Virus record (IMG/VR): IMGVR_UViG_3300030117_002723
Span: 1 to 21,920 of that record
Direction: 5' to 3' (one strand)
Origin: a virus
DNA: 21,920 bases
Shown: piece by piece, positions 9,718 through 21,920 of the stretch
Layout: each line of letters starts with the position of its first letter
Position numbering within the stretch: position 1 is the first letter of the stretch
Program-made: the position numbers and the translations under genes
Notes under the pieces: generated by a model
Databases searched by the model: none
The model's input: the letters and a program-made list of their open reading frames with translations, nothing else
Told to the model about the DNA's origin: nothing

Positions 9718-11553
9718 ATGGCAGAAGATAAAGAATTAAATCTAGACTCGTTGTTAGCAGCAAAGCAATACGAAACATCATCTAGAAAAAAAAGAGAAGA
9801 TAAACAATACATTAAAGAAGTTGTAGCTGATTTCGGTAGTAGATTTATGAGTTCTTTATTAATTGACCAACCGGCTGCTTTACGTAAAGACTATATACAA
9901 GCTAATTTACAAGATGCTAAATTCCAAGCAGCTATTGAAAGAGAAAAAATAAAACATAAAACAGCTTATGTAGCAGAAAGAAAAGAAGACTTAGATTTTG
10001 TTAACTCATTTTCTAATCCAGATATTGGATTTTATAAGTTAGCAGAAAAAAACTTTTTAGCTAGTGAAGAAGGTAAAAAATATATTGAGTTAGGTGCAGA
10101 TGATGCTTATTTAGATTTTCCTACAGAAGTTACTGACAGTATTATAAAAAGTAAAAAAGATTTTTTAACAAGTGAAGGTGAAAGACTAAAGAATTTATAT
10201 CAACCATATATTGATAACCCTGATTTAATTATTGAACAATTAACTGCTCCAGACAGATTAAGTAGACAAGTAAGAGATTCATTGTATGCTAAGACTTATG
10301 CAGATGCAGAGGCTCAGTTTGGAACTTTTAATTTTATTAAAAATTTATTTGGAGCAAACGTTGCTACACATTCTAGATATGCTTATTTACAAGATGAAAT
10401 TGAAGCAAGAATAGAAGCTGAAACTCAAAAAATTAAAGAGATAGCAGACTTTAATACTTTTGCTAATGGTAAAAAAGCAAGTGAGACAACATTAACTTCT
10501 CCGTTTGCATTAGGAGCTTCGTACAAAAACAGATTTACTAAAATGAATACTGCTTTTAAAGATATGAGTACAAAAAATGCTCAACAAAGAGCTAAAGAAC
10601 TTTTTACAGTACCACCAAAAAGAATACTGGTACTAGAAGACTCAGCTCAAGCAGATGGAGAGTTAATCTCTGGTGCTTTATTAACATCTGAACAAAGAAC
10701 TAAACTTAGAGAAGATAATAAAACTAATCAGTTACCGCAAAACATATTTTTTGAATCAACTACTCCGGGTTATATTTATGGAACATATGATGGAGATGAG
10801 TTAAGAAAACGTAAAAGTGTAGAGTTAGGTCTTAATCCTGATTTAGACCCAACACAACAAGTTAAAGTTAGGGCAAAGACTGTAGACAAAGATGGTAATA
10901 TTCGTTTTGTAGAACAAAATATTGGTCTGAATGAAGCTTTAATAGCAGACGTTACTTTAGGAGCAGAATTTTTTAGACATAAAGATTTAACAGAAACTAA
11001 GGATATGACCCTAGTTCAACAGAATGATGTTGGCTTTAATTACGAAAGACAATATGTAAAATTCTTAGTAGAGTCTGGTAATATCTGGTATGACCGTAAT
11101 GGAGTATTACATTATGACCGACCTTCATTAGCTAGAGATTTAACTCAAGCCAATGATGTCTCTAAAGGTTTTAATGAAGCAGATGTTATAAATGCTAGAT
11201 TAATGAGTCAATTAGACAAAGAATCTTTAACAACTGAAGACTTTTTTAATCAAAGTATTGATATAAAAATTAACACTATTAGAAATTCTAATATGCCACC
11301 AGATTTACTAGAAGAAAAACTTGGTCAACTTGAAAATTTAAATACCGAAAAAGATAAACAACAAGAGTTTTTAATTAATCTTGTTATGCCACCAAAAGAT
11401 TTAAGAGGCACAATTGTAAAATATAGTAATCATTATTTCTCAGCCGGTGAATTAACTGATGCACAAAAAGAAGCCTTATACAATCGTTTTATAATGGACT
11501 TTAATGACAATGAAGACTTTCCATTATTAAAAACTATTTTTCAAATTAAATGA
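9718..11553 (+). CDS. Large helical internal virion protein (gp15-like position)
   Basis: A 611-residue, charged, mostly helical protein starting 2 bases after the previous stop and overlapping the next gene by 4 bases (ATGA). There is no signal peptide or clear transmembrane segment. The N-terminal third is Lys/Glu/Ala-rich (KFQAAIEREKIKHKTAY); a region near 200-220 contains FGTFNFIKNLFGANV; the middle (about 330-400) looks more beta-rich. It sits between the putative membrane-active protein and the 1331-residue lysozyme-bearing protein, the slot occupied by the middle ejection protein (gp15) of T7. The role as part of the DNA-ejection conduit is inferred from order and size; no sequence motif proves it. 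Confidence 0.65.
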   Translation: MAEDKELNLDSLLAAKQYETSSRKKREDKQYIKEVVADFGSRFMSSLLIDQPAALRKDYIQANLQDAKFQAAIEREKIKHKTAYVAERKEDLDFVNSFSNPDIGFYKLAEKNFLASEEGKKYIELGADDAYLDFPTEVTDSIIKSKKDFLTSEGERLKNLYQPYIDNPDLIIEQLTAPDRLSRQVRDSLYAKTYADAEAQFGTFNFIKNLFGANVATHSRYAYLQDEIEARIEAETQKIKEIADFNTFANGKKASETTLTSPFALGASYKNRFTKMNTAFKDMSTKNAQQRAKELFTVPPKRILVLEDSAQADGELISGALLTSEQRTKLREDNKTNQLPQNIFFESTTPGYIYGTYDGDELRKRKSVELGLNPDLDPTQQVKVRAKTVDKDGNIRFVEQNIGLNEALIADVTLGAEFFRHKDLTETKDMTLVQQNDVGFNYERQYVKFLVESGNIWYDRNGVLHYDRPSLARDLTQANDVSKGFNEADVINARLMSQLDKESLTTEDFFNQSIDIKINTIRNSNMPPDLLEEKLGQLENLNTEKDKQQEFLINLVMPPKDLRGTIVKYSNHYFSAGELTDAQKEALYNRFIMDFNDNEDFPLLKTIFQIK

Positions 11554-14500
11554 ACAGATACACTATAGAAGAACCTGATTTTTTTTCTATTGCTGAAACT
11601 CCTACTTCTGAAGAAGTTAAAGAAGAAAAAATAGCAATAGATAATAAACCATACAGATATAGAATTGACGACAGGGCAGACATTGATTTATTCGGCTCTA
11701 ATGTAAAATCAAAACCTCGTCAAACTTTTCAAAGCGTATATGAGTTTGAAAATGATGAAGATGTTTTAAAAGATTGGGATATTGTTGCTAATGCTATTAA
11801 TGAAAATGGCGAAGGTATAGCTGAGACTTTAAGAGACACAGACTTTAATTTAACATCAGCTATGGTAAGAGCTGGTCAAACAAATCAATTTACTCAGCAA
11901 GAAAAAGATGCTTACAATCGATTACGAACTAAATTTGCTAATACAAAATTAAAAGGCTTTTACGAATATTTTGAATTAATAGGTAATGCAACTGTTGATA
12001 CTGTACTCGACCCCTTTACCTTAGTAGCTTTAGTAGCAGCCCCTTTTACTGGAGGAACTTCTTTAGCAGCCAAACAAGCAGCAGCTACAGCAGTTTTACA
12101 AGGTTCGAAAAGATATGCATTAGCTAAATCTATTCAAGCAACAGCAACTAAACCTGTTACTTATACAACTCTTGAAGGAGCAGCTTGGAATGGACTTCAC
12201 AACTATTACAATCAAGATATAGATGTTGATTTAGGTAATCGAGACAATATTGATTGGAAAGAAGTTGGAACATCTTCAGCAATAGGAGGAGGAGTTGGTC
12301 TTGGTCTTGGAGCTGGTGTTGGCTTATATAGTGGAGCAAAATATTATAATAGATTGCAACGTTATCATAATGAAGATTCGATTTTAAAATATATAGATGG
12401 TTTAGATAAAGAAGCTGTTAAAAGTGTAGACGAAGTTACCGGAGCTAACAAAAAGTTTTATGAAGGCAAAAAAAGTATTGGAGGTAAAACAGCTTCAGAG
12501 TGGGTAGATTATACAATATCTAGATTACCTATGTTTGGTAAAGCTACCACTGAATTTTTATCTTTAGCAAAAGGTGCAGACAGTGTTAAAGATTTTATTT
12601 TAAAACTTAGATACGATGGCACAAGAACTATCTTTGGTACAAAACAAGCTGGTGATTCAGTTGGAGCATTATCTTATTTTGAAAATTTAGCAAACTATAA
12701 TGGTAAATATGCTGGTATAGGTATTAATCGAGCATTTAATCATATTGGTTATGGTCCGGGAAGAAAATTAACTGCTAAAGATAATAATGCTTTACATCAA
12801 TTAATGTTAGATGATAACACTAAAAAGTTTATACATACTGATGGTGTTGAATATGACATACCTAAAGAAGTACAAGAAGCTTATTTTGGTAAAAAAGAAA
12901 TAGGTTTAGTAGGTATCAAAGATATTATGGATGATATTTTTGAAGAGGGAGTTAAATTAGGCGAGTTTACTCCGGGTCAAAAAGTTCTTAATTATTTTCC
13001 AAGAGTATTTAATTACGGAGCACTTTCTAAAAATCAACCTAGATTTAAAAAATTATTAAAGAAATACGGTACAACCGATGAAACTACTGGAAAGTTTACT
13101 CCTTATGCTGCTACCGATGCAGATGCCGATGCAATTGTAAAAGACATGTTAGACTTGAGATATAGTCAATTTGATGTTAAACCAAAAGGCAGTGGTACTA
13201 GAAGCTTTCAACAACATCGAGTATTTAGTGAAATACCTGATGAAGAGTTAGGTTTCTTTTTAGATAACACTGGCAGCTCTTTTGTTAGCAATAATGTGAT
13301 GGAAGTTCTAAGTGAGTACGTAGGCAGTGTTGCACAATTATATGCTCGTAAAAAAACTTTTGGAGTTAGAAATATAGAACAGTTTGAAAATACTACATTA
13401 AAAAATATTAAAGACGAATTAAAACTGTTAGGTGCAAGTGATGAACAAATAGCTACTACTGCTAATGGAATTACAAAGTTATTTGGAGAAGTTACAGGAC
13501 TATCTGGAAAAGGATTAGCACCCGAAGGACCATTAGGCAGAGCTGCAAACATTGCTTCTGAATCTGTTAGATTACTTCAACAAGCTGCTCACTTAACCTT
13601 TGCAGTGCCTTCAAGTATTACTGAGCCTTTATTAATGTTTCAAAGAGTTGGGCTTAGAGATTATCCTAGAGTAGTGCATAATATTGCTCAAGGTATTTGG
13701 AAAGAAATAACAAAAAATACTGACCAACTTTATCAACTAGGTAAAGCTAGACTAGGACTAGGTAAAGCTAAGTTCAAAGATTTAGATGATGAATACTGGC
13801 AAGAATTATATGCTGGTGGAATGGCTATTGAAAACAATATTCTTGAAGGTTTAGATAGATTAGCAAGTGGTGAAAGATTTTATAATAAAGGTTTAAGGGC
13901 TACTTCTGATGCCTTTTTTAAAATGAATTTATTAACACAGTGGACTAGAGCTGTGCAAGGTGCAGCCTTTACTTCCGGAAAACTTTTAATTAGAAGAAAC
14001 CTACAAAAACTTTACGACCACAAATTAGGAGTTGCAAAATTAACTGAAGGTGACTTTAGAGGTCTAGGTATGAACAAAAAAGAATACTTAGAAAAGCAAC
14101 TACAAGAGTTAGGTATTGACCCTGAAGAAGGCATGGCTTGGTATCGAAGTTCATTAGATGACAATTTAGACTTTAATGTAAATAAATCTGAGCAATCTCC
14201 TTTTTATAAAGAAAAGTATTTAGAAGGGGCTAAGAGATTTACTAATGAAACTATTTTAAACCCTAATAGAGCAGCAGCAGCTAAATCAATATTAATGCAA
14301 AGTGGTTGGGGTAAACTTGCATTTCAATTTATGAGTTACCCAACTTTATTTAATAATGTAGTAATAAAAAGAATGTTAAATGAACTTAGAGAATATCCAG
14401 TGCAGACTTCACCTAAACTTTTAATTACAGGATTTTTAATGACTTCTATTGCTATGCAAATGAATTTACTTAGGAATCCAGAAAGACATACTAAAATGTC

Positions 14501-15545
14501 TGATGAAGAAAATATTTTAGAAGCAGCAGAAAGATGGGGTGCGTTAGCTCAAGGTTCAATGGTTAAAAGAACTGCAGAGGCTGCTAAATACGGTTCAGGA
14601 TTTACAGGCTCTTTAACAAGAGGAGTCTTTGGTCCATCTGTAGGTGATGCTTTAGATTCTATTGAATATAAATTAGGTCCAACTTCTATTGTTGCTCGAA
14701 ATGTACCTTTTTCGCAAGTTATAAAAAGATTAGAACCAGAAAAATATAAAGAGTTTCAAACATGGGCTAAAGAAATGGATGAAAGTTATTTTGGTTTAAT
14801 TGATGATGAAACTTCTTATCAAGAATATAGCTCATATAGAACAGGAGGTTTAGTAACAAATGTGCCTAATGCTTCTCCAGAACCAGAAAAAAGAGTTAAT
14901 AAAATGACTGGTGTGCCTTATGATATTGAAGCTGGTCCATCAGCACAGCCAGAAAAAACCAGAGCAGGTTTGAGTGAGGAAGGTAAGTTACTAGCTACAT
15001 TAGCTCGTAGACAAAAGCTTAGTGAAGGAGGACAACCTCAAAGTTATCAAGATATTTTGTTTAATTTTATCGCACAAGCCGAAGATGCTAAATTATATGA
15101 ACGTATGTTAAAAGGAGAAAATCCTGAATTAACAGCATATTTACCAACTCCCAATGATGTACAGACTATTGGGTTTGGTAGAACTAGAGGTGTAACTAAA
15201 GACACAAAAAGCACTTTAGAAGAAGAAAAAAATAAATTAAGAGAAGAACTTGAATTATTTGAAAGAGAAACAATTAAGAGTATTGGTCAAAAAAGATTTG
15301 ATAGTTTAAATAATAATCAAAAAGCAGCAGTAGTAAGTTTAATTTTTAATGTTGGTCGAAGTGCATTTGATGGAACAAACGCACAAAAAGCAATAAAAGC
15401 TGGAGATTTGGATACATTTATGAAAGAAGCATTTGACCCGCAACTAGGCTTTACAAAACAAAGAAATGCTGATGGACAACTAGAAATTTTAGAAGGCTTA
15501 CAAAATAGAAGACAAGCAGAGAAAGATTTATTTTTAAGAAACTAA
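11550..15545 (+). CDS. Giant internal/ejection protein with C-terminal GH24-like lysozyme domain
   Basis: A 1331-residue protein, the size of the largest internal proteins of podoviruses (T7 gp16 class). Hydrophobic or glycine-rich segments occur at about 150-180 (FTLVALVAAPF), 242-265 (AIGGGVGLGLGAGVGLYSG), 922-935 (LAFQFMSYPTLFNN) and 957-974. The last 160 residues resemble a T4-lysozyme-like GH24 muramidase: candidate catalytic Glu1178 in FIAQAED, then AYLPTPNDVQTIGFGRTRGV (TIGFG at 1206-1210), then SLNNNQKAAVVSLIFNVG (1252-1269), AIKAGD and GLQNRRQAEKDLF at the end. It would cut peptidoglycan while DNA crosses the envelope, or at lysis. T7 gp16 carries its lytic transglycosylase at the N-terminus, so the C-terminal location here differs. 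Translation is coupled to the upstream gene through ATGA and to the downstream gene through TAATG. Confidence 0.85.
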   Translation: MNRYTIEEPDFFSIAETPTSEEVKEEKIAIDNKPYRYRIDDRADIDLFGSNVKSKPRQTFQSVYEFENDEDVLKDWDIVANAINENGEGIAETLRDTDFNLTSAMVRAGQTNQFTQQEKDAYNRLRTKFANTKLKGFYEYFELIGNATVDTVLDPFTLVALVAAPFTGGTSLAAKQAAATAVLQGSKRYALAKSIQATATKPVTYTTLEGAAWNGLHNYYNQDIDVDLGNRDNIDWKEVGTSSAIGGGVGLGLGAGVGLYSGAKYYNRLQRYHNEDSILKYIDGLDKEAVKSVDEVTGANKKFYEGKKSIGGKTASEWVDYTISRLPMFGKATTEFLSLAKGADSVKDFILKLRYDGTRTIFGTKQAGDSVGALSYFENLANYNGKYAGIGINRAFNHIGYGPGRKLTAKDNNALHQLMLDDNTKKFIHTDGVEYDIPKEVQEAYFGKKEIGLVGIKDIMDDIFEEGVKLGEFTPGQKVLNYFPRVFNYGALSKNQPRFKKLLKKYGTTDETTGKFTPYAATDADADAIVKDMLDLRYSQFDVKPKGSGTRSFQQHRVFSEIPDEELGFFLDNTGSSFVSNNVMEVLSEYVGSVAQLYARKKTFGVRNIEQFENTTLKNIKDELKLLGASDEQIATTANGITKLFGEVTGLSGKGLAPEGPLGRAANIASESVRLLQQAAHLTFAVPSSITEPLLMFQRVGLRDYPRVVHNIAQGIWKEITKNTDQLYQLGKARLGLGKAKFKDLDDEYWQELYAGGMAIENNILEGLDRLASGERFYNKGLRATSDAFFKMNLLTQWTRAVQGAAFTSGKLLIRRNLQKLYDHKLGVAKLTEGDFRGLGMNKKEYLEKQLQELGIDPEEGMAWYRSSLDDNLDFNVNKSEQSPFYKEKYLEGAKRFTNETILNPNRAAAAKSILMQSGWGKLAFQFMSYPTLFNNVVIKRMLNELREYPVQTSPKLLITGFLMTSIAMQMNLLRNPERHTKMSDEENILEAAERWGALAQGSMVKRTAEAAKYGSGFTGSLTRGVFGPSVGDALDSIEYKLGPTSIVARNVPFSQVIKRLEPEKYKEFQTWAKEMDESYFGLIDDETSYQEYSSYRTGGLVTNVPNASPEPEKRVNKMTGVPYDIEAGPSAQPEKTRAGLSEEGKLLATLARRQKLSEGGQPQSYQDILFNFIAQAEDAKLYERMLKGENPELTAYLPTPNDVQTIGFGRTRGVTKDTKSTLEEEKNKLREELELFERETIKSIGQKRFDSLNNNQKAAVVSLIFNVGRSAFDGTNAQKAIKAGDLDTFMKEAFDPQLGFTKQRNADGQLEILEGLQNRRQAEKDLFLRN

Positions 15546-15787
15546 TGTTATTGTATACAGAAAAACAACTAGATAGAGCTTATCAGATAGACTGTAAAGC
15601 TCGTACTCGCAACAATACTCCTTGGATAAAGAGAGAAGAGTTTAGAGATATTTACGAAGATTTGATGGAAATCTATATGTTGCAGTTAGACAAACATCAT
15701 GCATTAGACCCTGATGCTCCAGATTTTATTTTAGATTCATTGAACGAAATAATAGGACAAAGTTTGCATTTTGAACCGGAGGATTAA
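15545..15787 (+). CDS. Small acidic protein in the lysis segment, unknown function
   Basis: An 80-residue protein whose ATG overlaps the preceding stop and whose stop overlaps the next ATG (TAATG on both sides), so its translation depends on its neighbours. It is helical and charged (EEFRDIYEDLMEIYMLQLD), with a basic N-terminal third and an acidic end (HFEPED). There is no transmembrane segment or cysteine motif. It lies between the lysozyme-bearing protein and the holin candidate, so a role in lysis timing or virion completion is possible. I do not recognise the family. Confidence 0.78.
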   Translation: MLLYTEKQLDRAYQIDCKARTRNNTPWIKREEFRDIYEDLMEIYMLQLDKHHALDPDAPDFILDSLNEIIGQSLHFEPED

Positions 15788-16221
15788 TGGGTTTTCCGTT
15801 TGAGATTATAACAATGCTAGGCTCTACCGTATTGGGTGGGGTCATGAGTATATGGGCAGAGAATAGAAAAGCTAAAGCCGAAGAACAAAGACTTCTTATT
15901 ACAAGAGGCGAGTTTGAAATGAAAGCAGTAAAAGCTGCTAGAGATAATAAAGATGTAGGCTTTCAATGGACTCGTAGAATTATCGCACTAACTGCAGTTT
16001 TTGCAATTATTGTTTTACCTAAACTTGTAGCAATATTTGCTCCAGATGTTTTAGTAACTGTTGGGTATACACAATTTAAACCCGGATTTTTATTTTTTAC
16101 TAAAGATGTAGAAATATTTAAATGGGTTACATTTGAAGGATTAGTAATTACGCAGTTAGATACTAATTTAGTATCAGCTATTATAGGAATGTATTTTGGT
16201 GGGAGTCTAGTCAAGAAATAA
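15787..16221 (+). CDS. Holin-like membrane protein (three-segment type)
   Basis: A 144-residue protein. Segment 1 is at about 5-23 (FEIITMLGSTVLGGVMSIW), followed by a charged helix (about 25-60) rich in Lys, Arg and Glu. Segment 2 is at about 64-86 (IIALTAVFAIIVLPKLVAIF), preceded by GFQWTRR. A weaker third hydrophobic stretch near 126-141 (NLVSAIIGMYFGGS) ends in a short Lys tail. This layout resembles the three-segment holin family of gene transfer agents and some alphaproteobacterial phages, in which a Trp-Arg motif precedes the second segment. It would permeabilise the inner membrane at lysis. The start overlaps the upstream stop (TAATG). Another small membrane protein with no lysis role is the alternative. 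Confidence 0.65.
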   Translation: MGFPFEIITMLGSTVLGGVMSIWAENRKAKAEEQRLLITRGEFEMKAVKAARDNKDVGFQWTRRIIALTAVFAIIVLPKLVAIFAPDVLVTVGYTQFKPGFLFFTKDVEIFKWVTFEGLVITQLDTNLVSAIIGMYFGGSLVKK

Positions 16222-16234
16222 AAAAGGAGTAAAA

Positions 16235-17257
16235 ATGAAAAGAGGGCTAATTGTTGGGGCGATATTATTATTTGCATTAAATGTGCAATCAGACCAGACA
16301 GGGGACTGTACTGCTGGTACGCAATATTGTGAGCAAAATAGTTTAAATACCACGAATACTACTACTACAAATAATACTAACACAAATACTAATACCAATA
16401 ATAATACTAATACCAACACAAATACCAATACTAATACTAATACTAACACTAATAATAATACGAATGTAAATACAAATACTTCTACAAATACAAATGTAAA
16501 TACAAATACGTCAACAAATACTAATAATAATAATAACGTAAATACTAATACTAATACTTCTACTTCTAATTCAACTGTTAATTCAACAGTTAATCAAAAC
16601 GTTAATAACAACAACACTAGTAATTCGACAAATACTAATAATAATACAAACACTAATAATACGACATCTGATAATACTAATAAAAATTACAATGAATCTA
16701 ATTCAAACTCAAATGTAAATACTAATAATACAAACACTAATAATTCTACAGCTAATAATACTAATAATAATTATAATAAATCAGAGTCTACACAAACAAT
16801 AAATCAAAATATAAATCAAAAAGCTCCTCCAGCTTCTGCAATTGCACCAAGTATTATGTCTTACTCACAAGACCTTTGTACTACTGGAGTTTCTGGAGCT
16901 TTTCAAGGTCAAATATTTGGTTTTTCTGGTGGTAAAGCAGTACGAGATGAAAACTGTGAAAGGTTAAAACTTTCAAAATATTTATATGATACTGGCATGA
17001 AAGTAGCAGCAGTGTCTATTCTTTGTCAAGACCCTAGAGTATTTAAAGCTATGGGAAATGCTGGAACTCCTTGTCCATACAAAGGTAAAATAGGAGACGA
17101 AGCTAAAGTTGCTTGGGCAGCAAACGTAGAAGAAACTCCAACATACAAAGAAGATTTAAAAAATTACATTGCTAAGTGTAAAAAAACTAAAAATCCAAAA
17201 GGTATAAAAAAATCTGGTAGCACTTGTCGTAAAGAATTTCATGCACAAAGTAGCTAG
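16235..17257 (+). CDS. Exported Asn/Thr-repeat protein with C-terminal six-cysteine domain
   Basis: A 340-residue protein with its own ribosome site (AAGGAG, 16224-16229) 5 bases before the ATG. Residues 1-19 are a signal peptide (MKRGLIVGAILLFALNVQS, likely cut after Ser19). A short mature start holds Cys25 and Cys32. Residues 38-181 are nearly pure Asn/Thr with some Ser and Val (NTNTNTNTN runs). A Pro-Ala linker follows at about 199-206. The C-terminal domain (about 208-340) has six cysteines (215, 241, 264, 280, 315, 331), with the motif CERLKLSKYLYDTGMKVAA followed by ILCQDPRVFKAMG. Eight cysteines in total suit disulphides in the periplasm or outside the cell. The function is unknown. 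The stop overlaps the GTG of the next gene (TAGTG), so the two exported proteins are probably made together. Confidence 0.82.
   Translation: MKRGLIVGAILLFALNVQSDQTGDCTAGTQYCEQNSLNTTNTTTTNNTNTNTNTNNNTNTNTNTNTNTNTNTNNNTNVNTNTSTNTNVNTNTSTNTNNNNNVNTNTNTSTSNSTVNSTVNQNVNNNNTSNSTNTNNNTNTNNTTSDNTNKNYNESNSNSNVNTNNTNTNNSTANNTNNNYNKSESTQTINQNINQKAPPASAIAPSIMSYSQDLCTTGVSGAFQGQIFGFSGGKAVRDENCERLKLSKYLYDTGMKVAAVSILCQDPRVFKAMGNAGTPCPYKGKIGDEAKVAWAANVEETPTYKEDLKNYIAKCKKTKNPKGIKKSGSTCRKEFHAQSS
16346..16777 (+). repeat. Asn/Thr codon repeat, almost free of G on the + strand
   Basis: This 432-base tract encodes residues 38-181 of the exported protein. It is built mainly from AAY and ACN codons (AATACT-like hexamers), with short islands encoding Val, Ser, Lys, Tyr or Asp. 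All four Thr codons and both Asn codons are mixed, so runs of identical hexamers stay short. The + strand is markedly poor in G across the tract. Confidence 0.9.
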
Positions 17258-19404
17258 TGAAAAGATTAGGATTAATTTTTTTACTGGTAATTAGTGCAAA
17301 TATATCTGCTCAGTATATTTACGAAGCTAATCAAAACTTATTTGATTTAACTAATCAATCTAATACAACAAATTTAAATAGCGGTGATGACCAACTATCT
17401 GCTGCTTTTAATTTAGATTTTACGTTTCAGTTGTATGATAATTCTTATACATCTGCACGTATGGCAACTAATGGTTGTTTACATTTTGGGTTAGGAACTG
17501 GCAATATAAATTTTAATAATTACTGCGGTGACTATACCCCTGACCCACTGCCTCAATACACTAATACACTGTTTCCTTTTTGGACTGACTTAATACGAGA
17601 TGGTGGGTCAAAAATGTTAGCTAAGAATTTTAGCGATAAATCTGTATTTGGTTGGTATGATTTACGAGAATATAATCGTGCTAATTCAGATAATAGTTTT
17701 GAAGTTATACTTTGGACTAATAACACTTTTGAGTTTCGTTATGGTGAATTAGATATTATAAACCATGATGTCTTGATAGGTGAACAAGGTAATTCATCTC
17801 AGATTTATATGTACCTTTTTCATGACGAGTGTTCTACAGGTACAACAAATGTTGCAGGTACATGTGTCAATATTAATTGGAACAATACCGTTGCTAATAG
17901 TTTATTAGAAAACGGTGGGTCATTGTATGGTAGTAATCTAGATTGTAGTGACCCTTTAAATGATTCGGCATGTCCGGGCTATTGGGAAGCTTTTGATGAT
18001 TTACAATGTGATTTAGACCCGCAGTATGCACCCTCTTGTCCGGGCTACAGGTTTGAAAATGATATTGGTTACTTTGCGTTAGAAGAAGATTTTGGTTATA
18101 CCGAAGAATACGAACAAAGTCAGTTAGGTTATGACGAAGATTATGAAATAGAACAGTTTGGATATTCTGATGACTGGCTTGAAGATGATGGTCAATTTTT
18201 AGGACCACAATTAATTGAAGAGTGGCTTGAACCTGAAACTATATTTATTGAAGAAGGTCTTGTAGTTTTAGAAGAATATGATAGTATGAGTGAAGAAGTC
18301 TACATAGACTTTGATATTCAACCTTTCGATAACGAGCCTATGTTAATAGCTTTACCATCGATTGAGTATGACCCATTACAACGTTTAAATGTTCTTGATA
18401 CTAGAGAATTAGTAGACTTGTATGACTTTGAAACAATAATTAGAGATGAGATATTAAATGAAGAAGAAATTAATGACGTGGATTTTGAAGACTTCGAAGA
18501 AATTGAAGAATGGTTTGAAGAAGAGTTGGAAACAATTTCACAAGATGATGAAGTCATCGAGATTGTCCAAAATAGTGAACAACCTCTATCCGAAATCGAA
18601 GAAGAACAAGAAGTCATAGAAGAGATAGCCGAAGCCGACCCCGCAATCAGAGAGGAAGGAGGTCGAAGTAACATGGATATGAATGTTGCTATGTCTATTG
18701 TGGCTAATACTATAACAACTGCTGTTAACAGTATGAGTGGAACTACTGCCGGAAACTCCATTCATGCTTCTGGAAATACAGTTAGTTCAGGAAGTATTAG
18801 TAGTGCTATCAATGGTGGTAGCAGTGTAGATTTTAGCTCTGGTAGTATCTCTAATTCTTTTGCTAACTCTTCTATGCAAACACAACAGGTTTTAAATAGC
18901 TCTGTTGATACTGGTAGTATGACTACAAACACTACTGACACAACTGTAAGCTCTGTTGAGTCTGGTCCAACTGTTAATACTTCTAATACTATTGCTTCTA
19001 ATACAGGAGGAAATGGAACTAGTGAGACTAGTGCTACAGATTCTATGTCAACCATGACAACAAGCTCAGAGGCGGATGCGATTGCAGAGAATGTTGTTGC
19101 TCAAAATTTAAAAGAACAACAAGAAGAACTAAAAGAACAACAAGAGTCTGGTGAGTATGGGGAAGAAGCTGGACTTGTAGCAGTTATGGGATTTAATCCT
19201 AATTTTGTAGGGTATTATGACCGCACTTTACCTGATAATAATTCTTGGTACGAGTCTAAAAATATATATACAACTGTTACATTAAATGATAATATACAAG
19301 GTTTCTATGCTATGGCAGGTAAAAGTTTAGATGTCATAACTGAGTTAGTGAACTCTCAACCAATGTTAAGTGGAGGCAGATACAATGAATTGGTTTCAAA
19401 CTAA
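17257..19404 (+). CDS. Exported nidogen-like (NIDO) protein with CPGY and acidic repeats
   Basis: A 715-residue protein starting at GTG, which overlaps the previous stop (TAGTG). The GTG is preferred because it gives an intact signal peptide (about 1-18, KRLGLIFLLVISANISA). Residues about 50-195 resemble a NIDO domain: beta-rich, with MATNGCLHFG, LFPFWTDL and VFGWYDLREY followed by SFEVILWTNNTFEFRYGELD. Two cysteine repeats follow, C230 to CPGY (239-242) and C251 to CPGY (261-264). Residues 265-465 are strongly acidic and include three GY-[TDS]-[ED](2)-[YW] repeats at 280-312. Residues about 470-605 are Ser/Thr/Asn-rich low complexity, then comes a Gln/Glu coil (614-632). The end (about 636-700) is a separate small domain, LVAVMGFNPNFVGYYDRTL followed by SWYESKNIYTTV. 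The role is unknown; adhesion or cell-envelope interaction is a reasonable guess from the domain types. Confidence 0.8.
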   Translation: MKRLGLIFLLVISANISAQYIYEANQNLFDLTNQSNTTNLNSGDDQLSAAFNLDFTFQLYDNSYTSARMATNGCLHFGLGTGNINFNNYCGDYTPDPLPQYTNTLFPFWTDLIRDGGSKMLAKNFSDKSVFGWYDLREYNRANSDNSFEVILWTNNTFEFRYGELDIINHDVLIGEQGNSSQIYMYLFHDECSTGTTNVAGTCVNINWNNTVANSLLENGGSLYGSNLDCSDPLNDSACPGYWEAFDDLQCDLDPQYAPSCPGYRFENDIGYFALEEDFGYTEEYEQSQLGYDEDYEIEQFGYSDDWLEDDGQFLGPQLIEEWLEPETIFIEEGLVVLEEYDSMSEEVYIDFDIQPFDNEPMLIALPSIEYDPLQRLNVLDTRELVDLYDFETIIRDEILNEEEINDVDFEDFEEIEEWFEEELETISQDDEVIEIVQNSEQPLSEIEEEQEVIEEIAEADPAIREEGGRSNMDMNVAMSIVANTITTAVNSMSGTTAGNSIHASGNTVSSGSISSAINGGSSVDFSSGSISNSFANSSMQTQQVLNSSVDTGSMTTNTTDTTVSSVESGPTVNTSNTIASNTGGNGTSETSATDSMSTMTTSSEADAIAENVVAQNLKEQQEELKEQQESGEYGEEAGLVAVMGFNPNFVGYYDRTLPDNNSWYESKNIYTTVTLNDNIQGFYAMAGKSLDVITELVNSQPMLSGGRYNELVSN
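17944..18192 (+). repeat. Cys-Pro-Gly-Tyr repeats and 11-residue acidic repeats
   Basis: Bases 17944-18048 hold two cysteine units of about 21 residues, each a Cys, eight or nine residues, then CPGY. Bases 18094-18192 hold three units of 11 residues beginning GY followed by acidic and aromatic residues (GYTEEYEQSQL, GYDEDYEIEQF, GYSDDWLEDDG). The two sets lie 45 bases apart inside the nidogen-like protein. Confidence 0.75.
19372..19376 (+). promoter_or_regulatory. Shine-Dalgarno (GGAGG) inside the preceding gene
   Basis: GGAGG lies 8 bases before ATG 19385 and within the last codons of the nidogen-like gene. It decides the start of the downstream membrane protein and would be lost inside the coding part if GTG 19370 were used. 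Confidence 0.75.
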
Positions 19405-19735
19405 AACAACACAATTAATAGCTTTAGTTTCTATCGTGGGAACTTTAGCAGGATTTGGATATACTGGAGCTACATATATTAATAGATTAGAAAATCTTGA
19501 AGCAAAGATAGGAAAGTTAGGAGCTACAGAACAAGCTCAACAAGCTATCGAAGAAAGATTTGCTGGAATCGAAGCATCAGTAGATTACATTAATAAATCT
19601 TTAGAGGATAAAGATACAACAAAAGATATTGTTGAATTGAAAACTTCAATGGCAACAATTCAAACAGAGGTAAAATCTCTGGAGGGAAAGGTTCAAGAAT
19701 TAGTTAATAGTTCAAAGAACCCATTAGCACAATAA
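19385..19735 (+). CDS. Membrane-anchored coiled-coil protein
   Basis: A 116-residue protein. The ATG at 19385 is chosen over the in-frame GTG at 19370 because a perfect GGAGG (19372-19376) stands 8 bases before it. The gene overlaps the end of the nidogen-like gene by 20 bases in another frame. Residues about 10-31 are hydrophobic (LIALVSIVGTLAGFGYTGA), and residues 32-108 are a predicted coiled coil (INRLENLEAKIGKLG; TSMATIQTEVKSLEGKVQEL). There is no lipobox. The overall plan matches that of the small protein at 5534-5776. The function is unknown; a spanin-like or envelope-tethering role is possible but not demonstrated. Confidence 0.8.
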   Translation: MNWFQTKTTQLIALVSIVGTLAGFGYTGATYINRLENLEAKIGKLGATEQAQQAIEERFAGIEASVDYINKSLEDKDTTKDIVELKTSMATIQTEVKSLEGKVQELVNSSKNPLAQ

Positions 19736-19760: not shown

Positions 19761-19844
19761 GTGAACCGAGAAGAATTATGCATTATGTGCTTTTTCTTTT
19801 GGATAACAGTTTCGATGTTTGTCGCAACTTTTAATATATTTTAA
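19761..19844 (+). CDS. 27-residue hydrophobic micro-protein
   Basis: A short frame starting at GTG 19761 with a perfect GGAGG (19750-19754) 6 bases upstream; it ends at TAA 19842. The product begins MNREELCIMCFFFW and continues as one hydrophobic stretch to the end, so it would be a single-span membrane peptide with two cysteines near the membrane face. It is the last + strand gene before the convergent block, 25 bases after the previous stop. The ribosome site and gene-sized fit favour a real gene; the small size leaves doubt. A lysis regulator or small membrane toxin-like peptide is possible, without direct evidence. Confidence 0.5.
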   Translation: MNREELCIMCFFFWITVSMFVATFNIF

Positions 19845-19849
19845 AATTA

Positions 19850-20083
19850 TTATTTAGAGTTCATAACTCGAGCATTTAGACATGACTCAATATGATTATG
19901 AATCTCATCCATTTTTTGACTAGCTTCTCTTATTATAACCTTTAGAGTTTCATACTCTTCAAGGGTCATGAACTTCTGTAACTTTGTTATGTCAACTTTG
20001 CTACGTTCAGTAATAAGATTACCACTCTTGTCATATAATAATCGGTAAGCTAATAATTGTGCTTCATTTCGTTTCGTCTTCAT
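19850..20083 (-). CDS. Small protein of unknown function downstream of nrdB
   Basis: A 77-residue protein read leftward, whose start overlaps the end of nrdB by 20 bases in another frame; AGGA stands 8 bases before its ATG. It begins MKTKRNEAQLLAYRLLYDKS and is helical in its second half (LEEYETLKVIIREASQKMDE). There is no membrane segment, and its single cysteine is not part of a metal-binding motif. The close link to the reductase genes implies co-expression, but no function can be assigned. Its stop is 5 bases from the stop of the convergent micro-ORF. Confidence 0.75.
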   Translation of the reverse strand: MKTKRNEAQLLAYRLLYDKSGNLITERSKVDITKLQKFMTLEEYETLKVIIREASQKMDEIHNHIESCLNARVMNSK

Positions 20084-21056
20084 TGTTTAGTCCTGCAAAG
20101 GTCAATTGTCCATAATCGCCTCTAAGTCCTGCTTTCTGATATGAAGTAGCTCTGCCTTCAAAAAAGTTTTGATGCTCTACTCCCAATACATCATCTAACC
20201 AAGTCAGGGGATTATCCTTTTGCTTGTAATTTGGTTTTAGCCCTAACTGTAATAGTCTTCTGTCTGCAATATATTTATTGTAGGCATACATCTCCTCTTT
20301 GGTTAAACCTTCTAGATTACCCATTTCAAACACTAAGTCTAAAAACTTTTCTTCAAGTTTAACCATCTCTCTACATATTTGATAGATTTCTTTTTTAAAG
20401 TCATCTGTCCAAATATCTAAATTCTCTTTTATAAATTCTCTAAATAATTTAGTCATTGCTTCAACATGTAAGCTTTCATCTTTGATTGAGTAAGCTACTA
20501 TCTGACACATACCTTTCATCTTACCAAACCTTTGAAAGTTCATCAGGATTGCAAAGCTACTAAATAATTGTAACCCCTCAGTAAATGCTGAGTAGACTGC
20601 TAAAGTTTTAGCTATAGTTTTCTTATCAGATTTAAGAGGTTTAAAATTACCAACATAGTCATGCTTGTCTGCCATCTCCTCGTATTCAGCAAAAGCTTTA
20701 TATTCTAATTCTGGCATTCCTACTGTATCCAATAGTAAACTGTAAGCATGTTGATGAATAGCTTCCATATTAGCAAACGAAGACATCATCATTCTTGCTT
20801 CTGGTTTTTTAAAGATAGGCATATATTTATCTATATATCCCCCGGCAACATCTACATCTGACTGAGTAAATAATCTAAATATTTGCACTAATAAATTTTT
20901 TTCATTAGCAGTTAGCTTTTCGTTCCAGTCTTTTACATCAGTATGCAAAGGTACAGACATAGGATGCCAATGCATTCTGTTTTGTAAATCATAATATTCA
21001 AACATCCATGCGTAATCAAATGGTTTGTAATGCTCTCTCGTAGCTAGTAATGTCAT
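20064..21056 (-). CDS. nrdB: Ribonucleotide reductase class I, beta (small) subunit
   Basis: A 330-residue radical-bearing subunit of aerobic ribonucleotide reductase, which makes deoxyribonucleotides with NrdA. All expected di-iron ligands are visible: Asp67 (SDVD), Glu98 and His101 (MEAIHQHAY), Glu160 (FTEGLQLF), and Glu194 and His197 (KDESLH). Spacings 67-98 (31) and 160-194 (34) match the E. coli D84-E115 and E204-E238 pairs. Tyr105 is at the place of the radical Tyr122, so it should be a standard tyrosyl-radical enzyme. It is shorter than the 376 residues of E. coli NrdB, mainly between Glu98 and Glu160. Its ATG overlaps the stop of the small gene upstream (TAATG). Carriage on the strand opposite the virion genes suggests separate, probably earlier, expression. 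Confidence 0.97.
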   Translation of the reverse strand: MTLLATREHYKPFDYAWMFEYYDLQNRMHWHPMSVPLHTDVKDWNEKLTANEKNLLVQIFRLFTQSDVDVAGGYIDKYMPIFKKPEARMMMSSFANMEAIHQHAYSLLLDTVGMPELEYKAFAEYEEMADKHDYVGNFKPLKSDKKTIAKTLAVYSAFTEGLQLFSSFAILMNFQRFGKMKGMCQIVAYSIKDESLHVEAMTKLFREFIKENLDIWTDDFKKEIYQICREMVKLEEKFLDLVFEMGNLEGLTKEEMYAYNKYIADRRLLQLGLKPNYKQKDNPLTWLDDVLGVEHQNFFEGRATSYQKAGLRGDYGQLTFAGLNNEDETK

Positions 21057-21265
21057 TAAAACTTCTCCTCTAATGTTTTTAATTTTTCATCTGCGTTTAC
21101 ATATTGGTCCATAAGCTTATCCATTGATTCAACAACATTTGGATGCTCAGCCACTCCTACTTTGTTTTCAAAATATATTTGAAGGTTGGCTTTAGCTTCT
21201 GCTTTTTCTGCTTTGTATTTTGTTTCTAGAGCTTTATACAATAGTGCTCCTGAATATTTAGTCAT
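21056..21265 (-). CDS. Small helical protein between nrdA and nrdB
   Basis: A 69-residue, charged, Lys/Glu/Ala-rich protein (ALETKYKAEKAEAKANLQIY; DKLMDQYVNADEKLKTLEEK), likely two helices or a coiled coil. It has no cysteine and no membrane segment. Its start overlaps the end of the zinc-ribbon gene by 8 bases (ATGACTAA) and its stop overlaps the nrdB start (TAATG), so it is locked into the reductase operon. It could assist the reductase or merely travel with it. The family is not recognised. Confidence 0.75.
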   Translation of the reverse strand: MTKYSGALLYKALETKYKAEKAEAKANLQIYFENKVGVAEHPNVVESMDKLMDQYVNADEKLKTLEEKF

Positions 21266-21419
21266 AATAATTTTCTCCTCTAGGTAAATAAACTAAAACA
21301 AAAGTCCTACAATTTGGACAACTTAAATTTGTTTCCATAATGTACTCTTCGTTTTCATCTTTTTCAATATCGTGGTCTCCACCCCAAATTAATTCTGTAT
21401 TACAGTGCCAACATTTCAT
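21258..21419 (-). CDS. Mini zinc-ribbon protein in the reductase operon
   Basis: A 53-residue frame. The start codon (21417-21419) is 2 bases after the nrdA stop (21421-21423), with GAGGG 5 bases upstream inside the end of nrdA. The protein begins MKCWHCNTELIW and has a second pair in SCPNCRTF: Cys3, Cys6, Cys34 and Cys37, two CxxC knuckles about 27 residues apart, a typical zinc ribbon. The loop between is acidic (about residues 15-29). Such mini-proteins may bind nucleic acid or protein partners. Its place directly behind nrdA, where some phages carry glutaredoxin, is notable, but CxxC pairs arranged this way favour zinc binding over redox activity. Confidence 0.82.
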   Translation of the reverse strand: MKCWHCNTELIWGGDHDIEKDENEEYIMETNLSCPNCRTFVLVYLPRGENYYD

Positions 21420-21420
21420 A

Positions 21421-21920
21421 TCAGCCCTCACAAGCTATACAGTCCACCTCATCTAATTTTATTCGGGGAACTTTAATGTTAACATTCTCTGCTGCTTTAG
21501 CTGCATCAGACCTAAAATAATAAAGTGATTTTAATTTGTTTGCACCATACCAATGAACATCGCTTACGTATTGTAAATACTCATTATGCTGTTCTTGATT
21601 CTGAGAGGAATCCGGTAAGATAAAAAATAAATTGACACTTTGACTTTGACAAACAAACTCTTGTCTTTTGTAGGCATGTTCAACTACCCAGACCTGATTG
21701 ATTTCATCAGCAGTTTTAAATAATTCTTTTTCTTCTTTAGTAAATATTCTTATGTTCTGAATAGAACCTCTGTTATCACTAATCTGTTGCCAAAGTTTTT
21801 TTCTTTTGTTTACTTCTGGAACTTTTTTATTTATTAATTTTTCTAAATTTTTATTTTTAACTTTGTAGCTACCGGATAAAGTCTTGTGCGTATAGACGTT
21901 AGCACGGTATGGCTCAATAC
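21421..21920 (-). CDS. nrdA: Ribonucleotide reductase class I, alpha (large) subunit, 3' part
   Basis: The last 166 residues are present; the gene runs off the right edge. Diagnostic family sequence is visible: IEPYRANVYTHKTLSGSY near the cut edge, then EINQVWVVEHAYKRQEFVCQ, QSVNLFF, a VHWYGANKLKSLYYFRSDAA segment and the C-terminus KLDEVDCIACEG. The final CxxC (Cys-Ile-Ala-Cys) is the pair that shuttles electrons from thioredoxin or glutaredoxin to the active site in this family. Tyr residues in the SLYYF stretch fit the radical-transfer pair of class I enzymes. It would act with NrdB in the cytoplasm to reduce ribonucleotides. The active-site cysteines and the regulatory N-terminal region lie outside the window. 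Confidence 0.95.
   Translation of the reverse strand, partial: IEPYRANVYTHKTLSGSYKVKNKNLEKLINKKVPEVNKRKKLWQQISDNRGSIQNIRIFTKEEKELFKTADEINQVWVVEHAYKRQEFVCQSQSVNLFFILPDSSQNQEQHNEYLQYVSDVHWYGANKLKSLYYFRSDAAKAAENVNIKVPRIKLDEVDCIACEG

What the first reader, a model, noticed from the sequence alone, without database searches (positions are those of the whole stretch)
16235..19404. Coupled pair of exported proteins of unknown role just after the holin
Two adjacent genes, linked by a TAGTG overlap, both begin with clear signal peptides. One has a 144-residue Asn/Thr tract and a six-cysteine domain; the other has a NIDO-like domain, CPGY repeats, a long acidic region and a distinct C-terminal domain. 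Together they take over 3.1 kb of a compact genome, so they should matter. Signal peptides are unusual for virion proteins, so these may act in the host periplasm or outside it: cell-surface modification, superinfection exclusion, host aggregation, or a matrix released at lysis. The signal peptides and repeats are seen directly; the roles are inference.
Basis: partly seen in the sequence, partly recalled or inferred. Interest (0 to 1): 0.68.

Follow-up and report, generated by a model that had tools for sequence, protein, structure and literature searches.

The report
Exported three-gene module beside phage lysis genes
Two secreted proteins of a marine phage turn out, with a third membrane-anchored one, to be a conserved but undescribed three-gene set that many unrelated ocean phages keep together, often next to cell-bursting genes; what it does is untested, but a role in opening the host's outer envelope fits best.

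Summary
Genes A (16235-17257) and B (17257-19404) share TAGTG and both start with signal-peptide-like sequences. In relatives from podoviruses, a myovirus, pelagiphages and roseophages, a strict C follows A in 174 of 182 loci (0.03 expected per locus). All 19 B-first loci with upstream room carry A. B's N-terminal domain is exchanged between lineages (NIDO-like, CBM-like, helical). A's 149-residue Asn/Thr tract keeps strict two-residue alternation and is under strong purifying selection against close relatives (dN/dS 0.04), so it is not slippage debris. The module often lies beside holin-like, lysozyme or M15-peptidase genes. Roseophages carry a short lipoprotein-like gene sharing A's core just upstream. 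Best explanation (about 0.4): a late, envelope-spanning complex acting at lysis. It is not a canonical spanin: A and B have no lipobox, and one phage contig carries an Rz/Rz1-like pair beside the module. It is not curli. Receptor masking, adhesion and other roles are not excluded. I found no paper describing it.

The parts
15787..16221 (+). holin-like membrane protein (144 aa) immediately upstream
   Evidence: phrog_38283 unknown E 2e-9; no Pfam holin match; profile link to family 19 and from it to GTA_holin_3TM-type proteins (hhalign prob 84%); genuine GTA_holin_3TM proteins lie just upstream of A in Mosig and two genes upstream in L126
16235..17257 (+). gene A: exported protein, 340 aa (phrog_20531 family, unknown function)
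   Evidence: (E 1.4e-14)
16235..16291 (+). A signal peptide (residues 1-19)
16346..16792 (+). A Asn/Thr tract (residues 38-186), strict two-residue alternation, dN/dS 0.03-0.04 against the two closest relatives tested
16871..17134 (+). A conserved core (residues 213-300): Gly-rich strand pair between two Cys, then helices; Cys215, 241, 264 and 280 invariant
   Evidence: helical part pLDDT about 92
17257..19404 (+). gene B: exported protein, 715 aa, GTG start overlapping the stop of A
17257..17310 (+). B signal peptide (residues 1-18)
17311..17871 (+). B N-terminal NIDO-like beta-sandwich (residues 19-205)
   Evidence: pLDDT 73-95 in most blocks, lower around 80-90; NIDO best E 4.4e-7 among relatives; 72% identical to the window across 40 relatives
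17872..18081 (+). B CPGY/Cys repeats (residues 206-275)
18082..18696 (+). B acidic, predicted disordered linker (residues 276-480)
19072..19401 (+). B C-terminal region (residues 606-715) with WYxxxxIY motif
19385..19735 (+). gene C: 116 aa, N-terminal TM helix, coiled coil, C-terminal NPL; third member of the module (ATG 19385, SD ggagg)

Best explanation
A, B and C form one phage-made complex in the host cell envelope, produced with the late/lysis genes. C sits in the inner membrane and sends a coiled coil with a docking tail (NPL) into the periplasm. A and B are exported by Sec. A's disulfide-stabilised core works at or near the outer membrane, held by a long stiff Asn/Thr spacer. B binds an envelope component through an exchangeable N-terminal binding domain and reaches across on a long acidic tether. 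The complex most likely helps open or destabilise the outer layers once holin and endolysin have acted, i.e. it works like, but is not, a spanin. Shown: three genes, signal peptides by sequence heuristics, conserved linkage, selection, and recurrent lysis-gene neighbourhood in part of the family. Inferred: complex formation, location of A and the lysis-stage role.
For: Strict C follows A in 174/182 loci against 0.033 expected per locus. A-B linkage: 19 of 19 B-first loci with upstream room. The same order occurs in HTVC202P, 023P, 033P and Baldr, in HTVC115P with fam7 directly after B, in myovirus Mosig, an Autographiviridae genome and roseophages. Lysis context among loci with at least three genes each side: 44/57 NT-type and 26/48 HTVC-type loci have holin-like, lysozyme or M15-peptidase genes within five genes. 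Pfam GTA_holin_3TM proteins lie directly upstream of A in Mosig, and two genes upstream in L126 with lysozyme next to them. C has i-spanin-like topology, and weak Rz-like hits (phrog_739) in several records fall on C itself, though that model also rings in all 14 control genomes. A roseophage protein upstream of A, with a lipobox in CRP-207 and CRP-810, carries A's core motif (hhalign prob 94%, E 1e-7; phrog_20531 E 0.004-0.007), linking the A core to a membrane-anchored protein.
Against: L131, a large phage contig, has an Rz-like/Rz1-like pair beside the module, so the module is not simply the missing spanin there. No lipobox protein was found in the window (a strict pattern that also misses some true lipoproteins), and A and B have no lipid anchor. 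No direct evidence that A, B and C touch each other. In 50/59 roseophage loci and 6/8 isolate loci no typed holin/endolysin family was seen within five genes, and in Mosig the module also adjoins primase/RNR genes. Six NT loci of one subclade lack C (L024, L026, L028, L029, L031, L032). NIDO and CBM-like domains are usually binding/adhesion domains rather than lysis parts. No expression or knockout data.
Confidence: 0.4

Rival explanations
1. Receptor or surface masking: B (glycan-binding N-domain) and A occupy outer-membrane receptors or LPS from the inside, preventing superinfection or loss of new virions on cell debris, functionally like phage T5 Llp (recalled, not tested).
For: Exchangeable binding-type N-domains (NIDO-like; weak CBM_4_9 hit in L008); exported; a roseophage lipoprotein carries A's core.
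Against: B's N-domain is highly conserved within the NT group (72% identity over 40 relatives) rather than diversifying as for variable receptors; the membrane-anchored C is unexplained; no lipobox in A/B; no PADLOC defence match beyond weak coiled-coil/low-complexity hits.
Confidence: 0.2
2. Extracellular fibre or matrix: the alternating Asn/Thr tract forms beta/amyloid-like fibres that aggregate cells, the 'sibling capture' idea proposed for pelagiphage curli.
For: 149-residue strictly alternating N/T tract under strong purifying selection; curli modules are known in pelagiphages (PMC9599517, PMC7029224).
Against: No CsgG/CsgF/curlin match in A, B or C; no secretion pore seen beside the genes; nearly constant membrane-anchored partner C; the long tract is limited to the NT subfamily (far shorter in others); a curli-carrying phage culture showed no clumping (PMC9004378).
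Confidence: 0.1
3. Virion-associated proteins: A and B decorate particles in the periplasm or after lysis.
For: Module follows the virion structural genes in the window; adhesion-type domains.
Against: Sec signal peptides, inner-membrane partner C, no virion or tail PHROG match.
Confidence: 0.1
4. Another periplasmic role during infection (nutrient capture, sensing, or lysis timing by an antiholin-like periplasmic sensor).
For: T4 RI shows that an exported phage protein can gate lysis (PMC8385771, abstract seen); proximity to holin genes in part of the family.
Against: No family match to RI or to transport proteins in Pfam, PHROGs or NCBIfam; size and three-part architecture.
Confidence: 0.2

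Closest known systems
Two-component spanins (Rz/Rz1, PseT.3/PseT.2)
   Same: C has N-terminal TM plus periplasmic coiled coil like an i-spanin; exported partners in the adjacent genes; lysis-gene neighbourhood in many loci
   Different: No outer-membrane lipoprotein among A-B-C; B is far larger with a folded binding domain; an Rz/Rz1-like pair coexists with the module in L131
Pelagiphage curli/T8SS module (CsgG, CsgF, CsgA/B)
   Same: Multi-gene exported cassette shared across pelagiphage families
   Different: No family match to CsgG/F or curlin repeats; different gene order and partners
phrog_20531 (unknown function)
   Same: A is a member by profile (E 1.4e-14)
   Different: Family has no assigned function; here linked to B and C and described as a module
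NIDO (PF06119) extracellular domain proteins
   Same: B N-domain in some relatives matches (best E 4.4e-7)
   Different: Window protein below threshold; architecture with acidic linker and phage context not seen in the families searched

Membership tests
Two-component spanin | i-spanin: N-terminal TM with periplasmic coiled coil | tested here: met
   C sequence and alignment; weak phrog_739 hits on C in several phages (that model also rings in all 14 controls)
Two-component spanin | o-spanin: outer-membrane lipoprotein (lipobox) | tested here: not met
   No lipobox in A or B, none elsewhere in the window by strict pattern scan; no phrog_812 in the 10 isolate/complete phage genomes
Two-component spanin | Outer-membrane disruption at lysis | not testable with these tools
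   needs expression/knockout
Curli / type VIII secretion | CsgG pore, CsgF, curlin repeats | tested here: not met
   Pfam scan to E 1
NIDO domain proteins | Match to PF06119 above curated cut-off | tested here: inconclusive
   Window 12.5 bits vs 25; 2 of 51 members at E<=0.01, best 4.4e-7; PDB fold search gave nothing, related predicted phage folds only
phrog_20531 | Profile match of the Cys core | tested here: met
   E 1.4e-14 window, 1e-8 to 4e-10 roseophages
GTA_holin_3TM (window 15787-16221) | Pfam PF11351 match | tested here: not met
   No match for the window protein; met for Mosig_00203 and L126
Known anti-phage defence proteins | PADLOC match | tested here: not met
   Only coiled-coil/low-complexity chance hits

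The most novel reading that the evidence does not exclude
A new, widespread class of phage envelope machine: a three-part complex (inner-membrane coiled coil, large exported tether with swappable binding head, Cys-stabilised outer component with a rigid alternating Asn/Thr strand) that opens or remodels the outer envelope of SAR11, roseobacter and other marine bacteria by a mechanism different from spanins.
Probability: 0.3. Interest if true: 0.82.

Novelty: new variant of a known kind. Interest (0 to 1): 0.58.

Why it matters
How phages of SAR11, the most abundant ocean bacteria, breach or alter the outer envelope is largely unknown; only one of the 15 records searched here (L131, not an isolate) gave a recognisable o-spanin-type (phrog_812) match. 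A conserved module shared across podo- and myoviruses, with a parts list and defined conserved residues, makes that question directly testable. The Asn/Thr tract is also an unusual case of a low-complexity sequence under stronger purifying selection than the folded domain beside it in the closest comparisons.

Tried and rejected
Curli/T8SS origin: rejected, no CsgG/F/curlin match. Tract as slippage junk: rejected; AATACT-like repeats exist at DNA level (TRF, 71% match) but codons vary synonymously (50 syn vs 12 nonsyn against L098) and the two-residue parity persists to lag 30; against the more distant L016 dN/dS of the tract is 0.26. Canonical spanin: rejected as membership (no lipobox; Rz/Rz1-like pair coexists in L131). 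Homology of B C-terminal regions across the three B types: suggestive motifs only, hhalign probability 0.1-6%, not claimed. HTVC027P gp14 as an A homologue: rejected (hhalign prob 0.1%). PDB fold searches for A and B: no hit. Sequence search of PDB: none for A, coiled-coil or acidic chance hits for B and C. Rfam on window: none. Bacterial hits in GTDB contigs: L129 and L131 clearly phage sequence in MAGs, L132 spurious, the rest not classified. HTVC027P transcriptome (PMC12753301) could not time A-B-C because the A query did not find A in that phage. My first B/C calling script gave wrong neighbours and was replaced.

Full report
Observation. The two ORFs are exactly as described: A 16235-17257 (340 aa) and B 17257-19404 (715 aa, GTG) share TAGTG. 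Both start with a typical signal-peptide sequence (heuristic only). Comparative support: against relatives the first 18-19 residues are only 29% identical while the residues right after the predicted cut are 86% (A head) and 72% (B domain) identical. The Asn/Thr tract spans residues 38-186.

A third gene. C (19385-19735) begins at ATG with its own ribosome site (ggagg), overlaps the end of B, and encodes a TM helix, a coiled coil and NPLAQ. In gene-order analysis C belongs to one connected family. With a strict definition (TM in the first 75 residues, NPL within the last 8), C occurs within 5.5 kb after A in 174 of 182 loci that have room, against 0.033 expected per locus. Of the 31 loci found with B as query, the 12 without A have their match starting within about 250 bases of the contig end, so A would lie off the contig; the other 19 all have A. 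Loci are not independent: many are close relatives, so the counts measure consistency, not independent events.

Breadth. The module is found in pelagiphages HTVC202P, 115P, 033P, 023P and Baldr, the 141-kb myovirus Mosig, an Autographiviridae fosmid and roseophages CRP-207 and CRP-810. B exists in three types with unrelated N-domains: NIDO-like (101 loci), a 'NGNFETGNASGW' domain with weak CBM_4_9 similarity in one member (75 ORFs), and a helical roseophage form (71 loci). In many HTVC-type loci two more envelope genes (fam7 = phrog_20984, TM plus coiled coil; fam9 = phrog_24646, small, hydrophobic N-terminus) sit between A and B. fam7 was found in 45 phage records, 40 of them Pelagibacter phages; in HTVC027P fam7 and fam9 precede an M15 peptidase.

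Lysis context. Among loci with at least three genes on each side, 44/57 NT-type and 26/48 HTVC-type loci have a holin-like, lysozyme or M15 gene within five genes; for roseophage loci it is only 9/59 with the families I could type. In Mosig the gene just before A is a Pfam GTA_holin_3TM protein (25.8 bits, cut-off 24.8); in L126 lysozyme and GTA_holin (43.2 bits) precede A with one small gene between. L131, a phage contig in a Porticoccaceae MAG, has the order Rz-like, Rz1-like, fam7, fam9, a further TM protein, A, B, C. Hence the module often lies in an envelope/lysis island but is not simply a replacement for spanins.

A in detail. The core (residues 213-300) has four invariant Cys and the motif NCERxKLxxxL..GMKVAAVxxLCQDxRVFxAMxxAGTPCP. 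AlphaFold2 models the C-terminal helical part at pLDDT about 92 and the tract below 50; Foldseek finds no PDB relative. In roseophages a short protein just upstream of A carries the same motif (hhalign 94%, E 1e-7). In CRP-207 and CRP-810 it has a clear lipobox (LLAGC, LLSAC); in 13 of 47 upstream paralogue ORFs a lipobox pattern fell within the first 40 residues as called, the others having uncertain starts. The tract: N and T alternate with a period of two that does not decay for T out to 30 residues, in 65 distinct sequences. Against L098, 50 synonymous and 12 nonsynonymous changes give dN/dS 0.039, lower than the core (0.088) and the NIDO domain (0.091); against L014 it is 0.028, but against the more distant L016 it is 0.26. 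Nei-Gojobori values in simple sequence are approximate, but A has the same length in L098, so alignment slippage is an unlikely cause there.

B in detail. Residues 19-265 form a mostly confident beta-rich domain in the model; the rest is mainly disordered with short helices. Foldseek matches only predicted proteins of uncultured phages (A0A6J5P7T5 E 2.8e-14). The N-domain is conserved (72% over 40 relatives) and the acidic linker is not (33%).

Mechanism. The nearly constant presence of an inner-membrane-anchored coiled-coil partner, two exported partners, an A-core lipoprotein in roseophages and the frequent lysis neighbourhood are best explained by a late envelope-spanning complex that helps breach or remodel the outer layers. 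Complex formation and lysis function are inference. Known spanins require an outer-membrane lipoprotein, and 91 of 677 surveyed phages had no recognisable spanin (PMC6139136), so undiscovered alternatives are expected.

Noticed in passing
window 11550-15545: A 1331-aa protein next to the virion genes ends in a Phage_lysozyme domain (Pfam E 5e-17), so a muramidase is fused to a large, probably virion-associated protein.
   Followed up: no
window 19761-19844: A 27-residue hydrophobic mini-ORF with its own ggagg site (VNREELCIMCFFFWITVSMFVATFNIF) directly after C, possibly a further small membrane peptide.
   Followed up: no
window 20064-21918 (minus strand): Ribonucleotide reductase small and large subunit genes converge on the module.
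   Followed up: no
L300 4471-6107 (HTVC027P); L182; L301: Two pelagiphage-wide unknown genes (phrog_20984 TM/coiled coil and phrog_24646 small, hydrophobic N-terminus) next to or near M15 peptidase genes: candidate general lysis/envelope pair of SAR11 phages.
   Followed up: partly
L009 1725-1940; L010 5558-5818; L216-L238: Roseophage short protein upstream of A, with a lipobox in CRP-207 and CRP-810, carrying a mini copy of A's Cys-helix core.
   Followed up: yes
L131 3595-4378: Overlapping Rz-like/Rz1-like spanin pair, the second related to proteins in HTVC008M and Vibrio and Sinorhizobium phages, annotated there only as hypothetical.
   Followed up: partly
L024, L026, L028, L029, L031, L032: Six NT-type loci have A and B but no C downstream, and several of their B ORFs have a longer N-terminus before the hydrophobic stretch.
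   Followed up: no
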